From Chloroflexota bacterium (lineage in GTDB: Bacteria; Chloroflexota; Anaerolineae; UBA2200; JACIWT01): 64,000 bases of DNA. Made by a program: the position numbers and the translations under genes. This document shows, in pieces, positions 37,240 to 39,097 of the stretch (the first letter of the stretch is position 1; each line of letters opens with the position of its first letter). The stretch lies in NCBI GenBank assembly GCA_014360825.1, contig JACIWT010000004.1, forward strand, positions 124,001 to 188,000. The letters are read 5' to 3'. The notes under the pieces were generated by a model. That model saw only the letters and a list, made by a program, of their open reading frames with translations. It ran no database searches and had not been told where the DNA came from.

Positions 37240-38238
37240 GTGACCAAACCAAAACGCGCCTGGATGGTACGTGCTGGGAGCGAGAACGAACTCGCAGATC
37301 TAGTTGAGGTGAACAGCGCTGTAGCCATCGGTTGGGCCAAAATGGGGGACGTTTCAGGCCTTAGGGGACGCGAGCAATTCAAGCAACGCTTCCAAGAAGT
37401 CTATCCAGATGTGTCCCCAGCGCGCATTAGTGTTAACGCTGGCCAAATGTATCGCTTCGCACAGGAGATGCACGAGGATGACTATGTCCTCACTTATATC
37501 AAGGCGAGCCGAGAAGTGCTGATTGGACTGGTGGAGGGGCCATACGAATACCGCAAAGATGTGTTCCCCGACCGTTACCCTCATATGCGCCGGGTCCAGT
37601 GGCTAAGAAAGGTATCACGGGATGACTTTAGTGCCCCAGCACGCAATTCTATGGGTGGTCTCGCGACTGTTTTCCAACTAGACGAGCATCTGGAAGAAAT
37701 TCACAGAATCGCCACTGCTACAGAAGAGGCGCCTGCTACCCCAGGTGAAGGCGAGGAACTCCCCTTCTTTTTTGAAGAAGTGAAGGCAAGGGCCGATGAA
37801 CTGATCGCCGATATCATCAGCCGCCTAGATCCTTACGACTTTCAAGATTTGGTGGCGGCAGTGTTGCGAGCCATGGGCTTCCGGGCCGTGAGTACTTCGC
37901 CTGGATCAGATCGTGGAGTAGATATCATAGCCCATTCAGACCCATTTGGTTTTGAGCAACCCCGGATCAAAGTGCAGGTCAAGCATCGGAAAGGAACAGT
38001 AGGCGGACCAGAAATGCGTGCATTTCTGGGATCACTGCGCACCGGCGACAGTGGTTTGTACGTGTCTACTGGTGGATTTTCCGATGACGCAAAGCGAGAG
38101 ACAGAACGCTCCCGCGAACCGGTAGCCTTGCTTGACCGGGATGGCTTCATCCAACTGCTACTAGAACATTACGAAGCGCTGGACCCCGAGTACAAGGCCC
38201 GAGTTCCGTTGCGTAAGCTGTGGGTGCCGGCAGGATAG
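37240..38238 (+). CDS. Mrr-type restriction endonuclease-like protein
   Basis: The 332-residue protein has an N-terminal domain (residues 1-130, RAWMVRAGSENELADLVEVNSAVAIGW) of a kind found before Mrr nucleases and probably binding DNA or modified bases, and a C-terminal Mrr catalytic domain (about 205-300): DFQDLVAAVLRAMGF, GSDRGVDIIAHSDPFG and KVQVKHRKG give the D-QxK form of the nuclease core. Mrr proteins cut modified DNA (type IV restriction). It starts at GTG behind GAGGAGG. No methyltransferase lies next to it. Confidence 0.85.
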   Translation: MTKPKRAWMVRAGSENELADLVEVNSAVAIGWAKMGDVSGLRGREQFKQRFQEVYPDVSPARISVNAGQMYRFAQEMHEDDYVLTYIKASREVLIGLVEGPYEYRKDVFPDRYPHMRRVQWLRKVSRDDFSAPARNSMGGLATVFQLDEHLEEIHRIATATEEAPATPGEGEELPFFFEEVKARADELIADIISRLDPYDFQDLVAAVLRAMGFRAVSTSPGSDRGVDIIAHSDPFGFEQPRIKVQVKHRKGTVGGPEMRAFLGSLRTGDSGLYVSTGGFSDDAKRETERSREPVALLDRDGFIQLLLEHYEALDPEYKARVPLRKLWVPAG

Positions 38239-38311
38239 AAGGCAACGTGTATGTCCATCTCATAGAGTGAGGGAGACAACTAGAGTTACACCACTGTCTG
38301 GGAGGAACTAT

Positions 38312-38455
38312 ATGCTGACCATTCGTGATTTCATTTATCTTGATGTCGAAAGGCACAAATCGATACTTTCTCAAATAGACCGTGGCTTGCTGGAAAGTAC
38401 GGCACAGGCTACTCTGAGCAAAGAGGAAATCAAGATCAGCGAGGAAACAGCATGA
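38312..38455 (+). pseudogene. N-terminal fragment of a DUF6414-like gene
   Basis: The frame from the ATG at 38312 (GGAGGAAC before it) gives 47 residues starting LTIRDFIYLDVERHKSILSQ, which resembles the N-terminus of DUF6414-type proteins (normally a few hundred residues), then stops in a 4-bp overlap with the transposase gene. The remaining coding sequence is not found downstream of the transposase. The gene appears cut off by insertion of the element. The family assignment is from memory of the N-terminal pattern and is only moderately sure. Confidence 0.55.
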
Positions 38456-39054
38456 CACACGACCCGGAAAAACACCACCGCCGTTCAATCAGGTTGCAGG
38501 ATTACGATTATTCCCAGCCTGGCGCCTATTTCCTGACCATCTGCACCCAGGATCAGCAGTGCCTTTTCGGAGAAATCGTTGACGGAGAAATGCAGTTGAA
38601 CGACGCCGGGCGAATGATTGCGCGATGGTGGGAAGAATTACCAAACAAATTCCCATCGGCCGAAACGGACGAATACGTCGTTATGCCCAATCATTTTCAC
38701 GGCATCGTCATAATCGTAGGGGCGGACCTGTGTGTCCGCCCCGATCCGGGCACACACGTCGGTGTGCCCCTACCGGAAATGGTGCAATGGTTCAAAACTA
38801 TGACGACCAATGAATATATTCGCGGGGTCAAGCAACACGGCTGGCACCCATTCCCCGGCAAATTGTGGCAACGAAATTACTACGAACATGTCATCCGTAA
38901 CGAACAATCGTTGCACAGAATCCGTGAATACATTGCGACTAATCCCCAGCGTTGGTCACTCGACAAGGAGAATCCCCAGCGCCGGGGTGCAGATGATTTC
39001 GATCTCTGGTTAGAGTCGTTCAGGACGCGCCCGGCCTCAGGGCGCGAAACATGA
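38452..39054 (+). mobile_element. REP-associated Y1 (IS200-like) transposase
   Basis: The 200-residue protein is a Y1 transposase of the RAYT group: SIRLQDYDYSQPGAYFLTI at the start, the HUH motif in VVMPNHFHGIVI and the catalytic tyrosine region NYYEHVIRNE. Such enzymes act on REP hairpins as single strands. A double REP-like hairpin lies inside the gene (38717-38773), in frame, encoding about VGADLCVRPDPGTHVGVPLP, and another lies just downstream (39073-39097). Frame is intact, so it may be active. It abuts a truncated gene on the left. Confidence 0.88.
38717..38773. repeat. double REP-like element inside the transposase gene
   Basis: Two hairpins, arms GGGGCGGAC (38719-38727 with 38734-38742) and GGGCACAC (38748-38755 with 38762-38769), are enclosed by GTAGGGGC (38717-38724) and GCCCCTAC (38766-38773). 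It is translated in frame as part of the transposase. Confidence 0.8.
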
Positions 39055-39072
39055 ACTACCACGTTTGTAGTA

Positions 39073-39097
39073 GGGGCAGACCTGCGTGTCTGGCCCC
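39073..39097. repeat. single REP-like hairpin between transposase and cysK
   Basis: GGGGCAGAC (39073-39081) and GTCTG-G-CCCC (39088-39097) pair with one bulged base around CTGCGT. It is the same family as the element inside the transposase. A partial copy, CCTGCGTGTCTG, follows at about 39096-39107. Confidence 0.72.

What the first reader, a model, noticed from the sequence alone, without database searches (positions are those of the whole stretch)
38717..38773. Double REP element embedded in frame in the transposase gene
Seen: two hairpins with enclosing GTAGGGGC/GCCCCTAC arms inside the RAYT coding region, between the HUH motif and the catalytic tyrosine, translated without breaking the frame. 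A related hairpin lies after the gene. Known: RAYT proteins move REP sequences. Inference: the transposase gene carries its own substrate, perhaps feeding back on its own mRNA or gene.
Basis: partly seen in the sequence, partly recalled or inferred. Interest (0 to 1): 0.55.

Follow-up and report, generated by a model that had tools for sequence, protein, structure and literature searches.

The report
Transposase gene carries translated REP hairpins
A bacterial transposase gene contains, inside its protein-coding part, a translated copy of the type of small DNA hairpin that such enzymes are thought to copy around genomes; this arrangement is already published, but here the DNA hairpin can be seen to dictate some of the protein's amino acids.

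Summary
A 58-nt REPIN (two inverted GTAG-tagged REP hairpins) lies at 38716-38773, one base earlier than stated, in frame in a RAYT/TnpAREP gene (38452-39054), between the HuH motif and the tyrosine, in a low-confidence loop between a strand and a helix. The kind is known: Quentin et al. 2018 (PMC6006769) describe in-frame REP insertions at this place as a feature of TnpAREP subclass 2.4.

The refutation named in the finding fails. Homologues with and without the insert exist, and most inserts are DNA-symmetric. Stem pairing persists across RAYTs whose fourfold sites are saturated, and base pairing alone accounts for amino-acid pairs (42 of 42 left, 29 of 29 right hairpins). In-gene REPs share loop and stem with REPs beside the gene more often than chance. 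The five strong RAYT matches in this genome all carry a palindrome there, each with a different stem.

No binding, movement or feedback on gene or mRNA was tested. In this genome the window's own REP sequence has no exact second copy. Best reading: an old REPIN in a tolerant loop, kept paired at the DNA level. A bolder reading, not excluded: a transferable founder copy of the RAYT's own substrate.

The parts
38452..39054 (+). RAYT / TnpAREP gene, 200 aa (HuH = NHFH, residues 80-83; WQ 139-140; YIATNP with the putative catalytic Tyr at residue 160)
   Evidence: ORF; NCBIfam NF047646 56.5 bits, E 2.7e-15, under its 80-bit cut-off; Pfam Y1_Tnp 20.2 bits, under its cut-off of 23; predicted fold matches IS608, ISDra2 and E. 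coli TnpAREP 4er8
38716..38773 (.). in-frame REPIN: two inverted GTAG-tagged REPs, encoding residues 89-107
38716..38742 (+). left REP: GTAG foot plus hairpin GGGCGGAC|CTGTGT|GTCCGCCC; a ninth G-C pair uses the last G of the foot (encodes VGADLCVRP)
38748..38773 (-). right REP, inverted: GTAG foot plus hairpin GGGCACAC|CGACGT|GTGTGCCC (encoded on + within PGTHVGVPL)
39070..39097 (+). degenerate single REP after the gene, stem GGGCAGAC/GTCTGGCC with one mismatch, loop CTGCGT

Best explanation
A REPIN of the type handled by this class of transposase sits in frame in the RAYT gene, in the variable loop between the strand that follows the HuH motif and the next helix. Shown: its place, frame, two hairpins, absence from some homologues, stem pairing across saturated RAYTs, and matching to nearby REPs. 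Inferred: the insertion at this site is old; the loop tolerates it because it lies away from the active site; stems are held paired, and loops partly held, because the RAYT recognises folded single-stranded REP DNA by GTAG foot, paired stem and loop. That would keep the in-gene copy a REP through selection on the DNA, or through re-copying or gene conversion from neighbouring REPs. The protein follows the DNA in this stretch.
For: 81 of 85 loci gave an intact linker; 69 of 81 hold a REP hairpin there. In a second set chosen by a query without the insert, 26 of 52 intact genes do, and 0 of 52 in the flanking gene core. Stem pairing with anchors that ignore the variable stem: 135 of 140 cells left (shuffle maximum 89), 149 of 156 right (maximum 98). 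Synonymous recoding: 7.89 of 8 pairs observed against 4.97; 103 of 106 hairpins at P<0.05. DNA-dictated residues: 42 of 42 and 29 of 29 hairpins (several hairpins can come from one gene). Fourfold sites: core 0.30 identical, free element sites 0.70, over 203 pairs of 21 sequences. Left foot at the same 33-nt offset in 28 of 63. In-gene against flanking REPs in 44 loci: same loop 25 (permuted mean 6.3, maximum 15), same stem 24 (8.3, maximum 17), both 17 (1.7, maximum 8). Strand 81-88, helix 107-129, residues 93-102 below pLDDT 50. Experiments on other TnpAREPs show roles for GTAG, for stem pairing and, in group 3, for loop bases (PMC8266576).
Against: In this genome the window's own REP sequence is not amplified, so 'cognate' rests on relatives. 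11 of 57 genomes with in-gene copies show no outside copies beyond the control count, so an active dispersed population is not required. The right REP of the window has a divergent loop (CGACGT against CTGTGT), so the two halves are not uniform here. In 19 of 44 loci no in-gene loop equals a flanking one. The E. coli enzyme needs a bulge in the stem and shows no loop preference (PMC8266576), so recognition rules differ between groups and none is known here for this subclass. Related rows inflate permutation and pair counts. Selection, gene conversion and repeated insertion are not separated.
Confidence: 0.8

Rival explanations
1. Ordinary protein sequence: the segment is a conserved surface loop and the DNA symmetry is a by-product of its amino acids.
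For: Motifs such as VGAD...PL recur across phyla.
Against: Symmetry at synonymous sites is far above recodings of the same peptide; residues change in pairs as base pairing demands; the peptide is unlike in other clades while the DNA symmetry stays.
Confidence: 0.03
2. Recurrent fresh insertion: REPINs keep landing in this loop because it is a tolerated spot, with no selection or conversion afterwards. (Partly compatible with the best explanation.)
For: Different architectures (two-hairpin REPINs, 28/29-nt double-foot palindromes) and different left frames occur at the site; each of the five strong RAYT matches of the own genome has a different stem; sequences that look like decayed remnants are seen (e.g. 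L068, L088, L093; my reading); REPs in genes are known in several species (PMC3733652).
Against: One offset (33 nt) in 28 of 63 left feet and one distance (17 nt) in 30 of 62 right feet point to shared ancestry in the main clade; 6 of 57 genomes show no copy outside the gene with the strict pattern.
Confidence: 0.3
3. Autoregulation: the RAYT binds the hairpins in its own gene or mRNA and lowers its own expression.
For: The region also folds strongly as RNA; the site is inside the gene; loops match flanking REPs.
Against: No expression data; the characterised TnpAREPs act on single-stranded DNA (PMC8266576); 26 of 52 intact homologues of the second set lack a hairpin.
Confidence: 0.1
4. Portable founder copy: the RAYT gene carries its substrate so that a horizontally acquired gene can seed a new REP population. 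(Compatible with the best explanation.)
For: RAYTs of this type occur in genomes named after many phyla; of 57 genomes with in-gene copies, 6 have none outside and 11 none beyond control, while 30 have at least 10 beyond control; in-gene and flanking REPs match; the window's RAYT holds the only exact copy of its left REP in the genome.
Against: No copying from the in-gene REP was observed; by their titles 61 of the 64 genomes counted are MAGs; the order of events (population before or after) is unknown; dispersed stems can differ from in-gene ones (L051/G027: loop shared, but many GGAC stems where the in-gene right REP has GAAC).
Confidence: 0.2

Closest known systems
TnpAREP subclass 2.4 with in-gene REPs (Quentin et al. 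2018, PMC6006769)
   Same: In-gene GTAG REPs, in frame, between HuH and Y, in a variable insertion between beta3 and alphaC; REPs near the gene; two-hairpin and double-foot REPs
   Different: One residue of the published YIxNNP motif differs (YIATNP); the downstream REP is degenerate. The covariation, recoding and cognate-matching tests made here are not in the passages I read; the supplement (Figs S6, S10) was not seen
GTAG REPs inside ORFs and REP heterodimers (PMC3733652)
   Same: Translated REP inserts; dimers of unlike stems, which the authors suggest may escape clearance
   Different: The passages read list repair, replication and other genes, not the RAYT gene itself
Rickettsia palindromic elements (RPE) in genes (mentioned in PMC3733652)
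   Same: Short palindromes translated in frame
   Different: CGTC-tagged, in other genes; no link to a gene's own transposase in the passages read
E. coli TnpAREP with REP hairpin (PDB 4er8)
   Same: Fold of the HUH core
   Different: 18% identity; belongs to subclass 2.2, which lacks the beta3-alphaC insertion (PMC6006769); E. coli REPs carry a bulge (PMC8266576)

Membership tests
TnpAREP subclass 2.4 (PMC6006769) | HuH motif NH[IFV]H | tested here: met
   NHFH, residues 80-83
TnpAREP subclass 2.4 (PMC6006769) | W motif WQ | tested here: met
   W139 Q140, invariant among 28
TnpAREP subclass 2.4 (PMC6006769) | Y motif YIxNNP | tested here: inconclusive
   YIATNP: one residue off; that column varies among relatives while Y160, N164, P165 are invariant among 28
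TnpAREP subclass 2.4 (PMC6006769) | variable insertion between beta3 and alphaC | tested here: met
   insert residues 89-107 run from the end of strand 81-88 to the first residue of helix 107-129; HuH-to-W lengths vary widely among relatives
TnpAREP subclass 2.4 (PMC6006769) | in-frame REP inside the gene between HuH and Y | tested here: met
TnpAREP subclass 2.4 (PMC6006769) | REPs flanking the gene | tested here: inconclusive
   one degenerate REP at 39070-39097
TnpAREP subclass 2.4 (PMC6006769) | subclass HMM profile and tree position of the paper | not testable with these tools
   profiles not held
GTAG REP / REPIN | GTAG foot, palindrome, two units in inverted orientation | tested here: met
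GTAG REP / REPIN | many dispersed copies of this sequence in the host genome | tested here: not met
   hairpin 1 has no other exact copy and two at 3 mismatches; the wider GTAGGGGC class has 100 matches. So it is filed as a REPIN by structure, not as one of an amplified family in this genome
HUH Y1 transposase fold | structural match to IS200/IS605-type enzymes | tested here: met
   4er8 E 1.2e-6, IS608 5.4e-7
NCBIfam NF047646 REP_Tyr_transpos | score over the curated cut-off | tested here: not met
   56.5 of 80 bits

The most novel reading that the evidence does not exclude
The in-gene REPIN is a built-in, horizontally transferable founder copy and specificity tag: the RAYT gene keeps a foldable copy of the hairpin that its own protein recognises, held at the DNA level at the cost of letting DNA base pairing choose part of the protein sequence, and dispersed REP populations with the same loop are seeded from it.
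Probability: 0.2. Interest if true: 0.65.

Novelty: new member of a known kind. Interest (0 to 1): 0.4.

Why it matters
How REP populations start and stay matched to one RAYT is, to my knowledge, open. A gene that holds a folded copy of its presumed substrate makes this testable: the in-gene loop predicts which dispersed REPs a RAYT should handle. The clean DNA-forced residue pairs (E-S, A-A, G-P, T-V; C, R or G after GCA, GCG or GCC) are also a caution for methods that read protein contacts from coevolution.

Tried and rejected
Chance symmetry: rejected. Ordinary protein: rejected. The window element as one of an amplified family in its own genome: rejected. Identical left and right stems: 1 of 45 in-gene pairs and 0 of 28 flanking pairs have the same stem, while the loop is the same in 21 and 15; for in-gene pairs the stem count equals the permuted mean (1.13), so stem 'avoidance' is not shown there; no permutation was run for the flanking pairs. 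Heterodimers are already described (PMC3733652). A first fourfold-site count (0.85) was biased by the search anchors; the corrected one is 0.70. The tree has only 7 of 78 inner branches starred and was used only for the depth of divergence. The literature searches cover only open-access papers; their listings showed no report of the covariation, but supplements were not read.

Rows dropped: 4 of 85 loci without an extractable linker (L046, L048, L064, L097). In the second set of 65 loci, 4 had no motif found (L143, L151, L163, L167), L103 (the window itself) was dropped, and 8 of the remaining 60 were broken, cut, masked or lacked a W motif in reach; one further hit at a contig end (G256) and the own genome's paralogues were not put in that set. 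The best 80 of 582 relatives were kept by the tool, ranked with a query that contains the insert, so 69 of 81 overstates its frequency; 26 of 52 is the fairer figure for the window's phylum. Genome-wide counts were made for 64 of the 80 relatives' genomes, with a strict pattern and listed places incomplete. In one search a double-foot palindrome counts once on each strand.

Full report
What is there. The window's ORF 38452-39054 encodes a 200-aa RAYT-type HUH transposase. It scores under the curated cut-offs of NCBIfam NF047646 (56.5 of 80 bits) and Pfam Y1_Tnp (20.2 of 23), but its predicted model (mean pLDDT 81.9) matches IS608, ISDra2 and the E. coli REP transposase 4er8. Inside it, 38716-38773 is a 58-nt REPIN: GTAG foot, a 9-bp hairpin (its first pair uses the foot's last G), a 5-nt spacer, an 8-bp hairpin, CTAC foot. 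The finding's start is one base late. It is read without a stop as VGADLCVRPDPGTHVGVPL, residues 89-107, from the end of strand 81-88 to the first residue of helix 107-129, and residues 93-102 are the only internal stretch below pLDDT 50. The HuH is at residues 80-83; Tyr160 is the putative catalytic residue. A degenerate related REP follows the gene at 39070-39097.

Is it more than chance? No shuffle of 200 folds as stably, and 2 of 2000 synonymous recodings do. A scan for GTAG hairpins in 442 kb of 81 loci found 330 against 3 in the reversed sequences. In the 64-kb window the same scan gives 5 hits against 3 in the reversed control, and only the two in-gene hairpins are without mismatch.

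The kind is known. Quentin et al. 2018 (PMC6006769; abstract passages, sections 11 and 13 in full, further passages) state that in subclass 2.4 REP sequences occur inside the tnpAREP genes, without disrupting the frame, generally between HuH and Y, in a variable region they model as peripheral. PMC3733652 (passages) describes REPs translated inside genes, and REP heterodimers. I therefore file this as a new member of a known kind. One residue of the published Y motif differs, in a column that varies among relatives.

Homologues with and without it. I took 80 relatives from genomes named after many phyla and the five strong matches of the own genome (a sixth, weak match and four loci of other RAYT-like genes, L010-L014, show no GTAG hairpin). 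81 of 85 gave an intact linker; 59 of 81 have both feet and 69 of 81 at least one REP hairpin. That set was ranked with a query holding the insert. A second set, found in 41 of 201 genomes of the phylum with a query lacking it, has the hairpin in 26 of 52 intact genes, and none of the 52 has one in the flanking gene core. Some homologues have only a short loop and no hairpin (e.g. L104-L108). The five strong matches of the own genome each carry a palindrome there, each with a different stem; the window's is the only two-hairpin REPIN, the other four being 28/29-nt double-foot palindromes, one of them with extra left-arm repeats.

DNA, not protein, is conserved. With anchors that do not look at the variable stem, 135 of 140 stem cells pair in 35 distinct left hairpins (10,000 shuffles: mean 71.5, maximum 89) and 149 of 156 in 39 right ones (mean 78.9, maximum 98). 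Synonymous recodings of the same peptides keep 4.97 of 8 pairs against 7.89 observed; 103 of 106 hairpins are at P<0.05, 63 at P<0.01. The residues follow the pairing. In the left hairpin (frame GTA GGG GCN, 6-nt loop) the third base of the Ala codon goes with residue 8: GCA with Cys 29, GCG with Arg 11, GCC with Gly 2 (42 of 42 hairpins, some from one gene). In the right hairpin of the GxHxGxPL frame the pairs are E-S 16, A-A 6, G-P 4, T-V 3 (29 of 29). The window has R with GCG, and T-V. Between RAYTs with saturated core (fourfold identity 0.30 over 203 pairs of 21 sequences; pairs above 0.5 were left out), free fourfold sites in the element are 0.70 identical (pairs are not independent). 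For the window against L023 this is 7 of 7 against 9 of 28 (P 0.0017), and against L024 6 of 7 against 8 of 27 (P 0.012).

Link to neighbouring REPs. In 44 loci with in-gene and flanking REPs, the in-gene loop recurs outside in 25 (permuted mean 6.3, maximum 15), the stem in 24 (8.3, maximum 17), both in 17 (1.7, maximum 8). Left and right in-gene REPs share the loop in 21 of 45 (permuted 4.0, maximum 11) but the stem in 1 of 45 (permuted 1.1); flanking REPINs share the loop in 15 of 28 and the stem in 0. Genome-wide, 57 of 64 relatives' genomes have in-gene copies of the strict pattern: 30 have at least 10 further copies beyond the control, 11 none beyond the control, and 6 none at all (by title 61 of 64 are MAGs). 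In the own genome the class is common (100 matches, control 2), yet the window's own left hairpin has no exact second copy.

How it probably works. Shown elsewhere for other TnpAREPs (PMC8266576; passages and part 1 of the discussion): single-stranded REP is recognised on one strand, GTAG takes part in binding or in the choice of cleavage site, stem mismatches harm cleavage in the two group 3 enzymes tested, and loop bases are critical there but not in E. coli, whose REPs instead need a bulge. Inferred here: the in-gene copy stays foldable, with a loop shared with neighbours, because it behaves as a REP for its own RAYT, through selection or through copying from neighbours. The loop of the protein merely tolerates it. 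Main-clade inserts share one left offset (28 of 63) and one right distance (30 of 62), which favours an old insertion followed by change in place; other frames and architectures suggest additional insertions.

What is not shown. Binding, cleavage, copying, and any effect on expression. Related sequences inflate the permutation tests. The rival readings overlap with the best explanation, so their confidences do not add up to one.

Noticed in passing
L137 and L135 (G214:C3): Two nearby RAYT copies in one genome differ in a 15-nt left-arm repeat of the in-gene REP (GAKNV/F units: 15 against 3); another RAYT of that genome (L139, contig C1) has 279 aa from HuH to the W motif. The loop seems to tolerate very large tandem growth.
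   Followed up: partly
L029 and L030: Nearly identical RAYTs (109 of 116 compared core codons encode the same residue) keep both stems but changed both loops.
   Followed up: no
L051 / G027: Dispersed REPs share the in-gene loop CCATGT, but many have a GGAC stem where the in-gene right REP has GAAC.
   Followed up: partly
own genome contig C22, 2-33 kb, and C4, 1-40 kb: Most listed REP-pattern matches fall in clusters such as these; the 64-kb window itself holds the in-gene REPIN and one degenerate copy, plus two weak hits no better than the control.
   Followed up: no
window 37240-38238 and 38267-38455: A protein with an Mrr-type restriction endonuclease domain, then a 62-aa ORF matching only the first 40 positions of DUF6414 (likely a remnant), upstream of the RAYT.
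   Followed up: no
L037, L079, L129, L156: In-gene REPs or whole REPIN units repeated three to five times in tandem, still in frame.
   Followed up: partly
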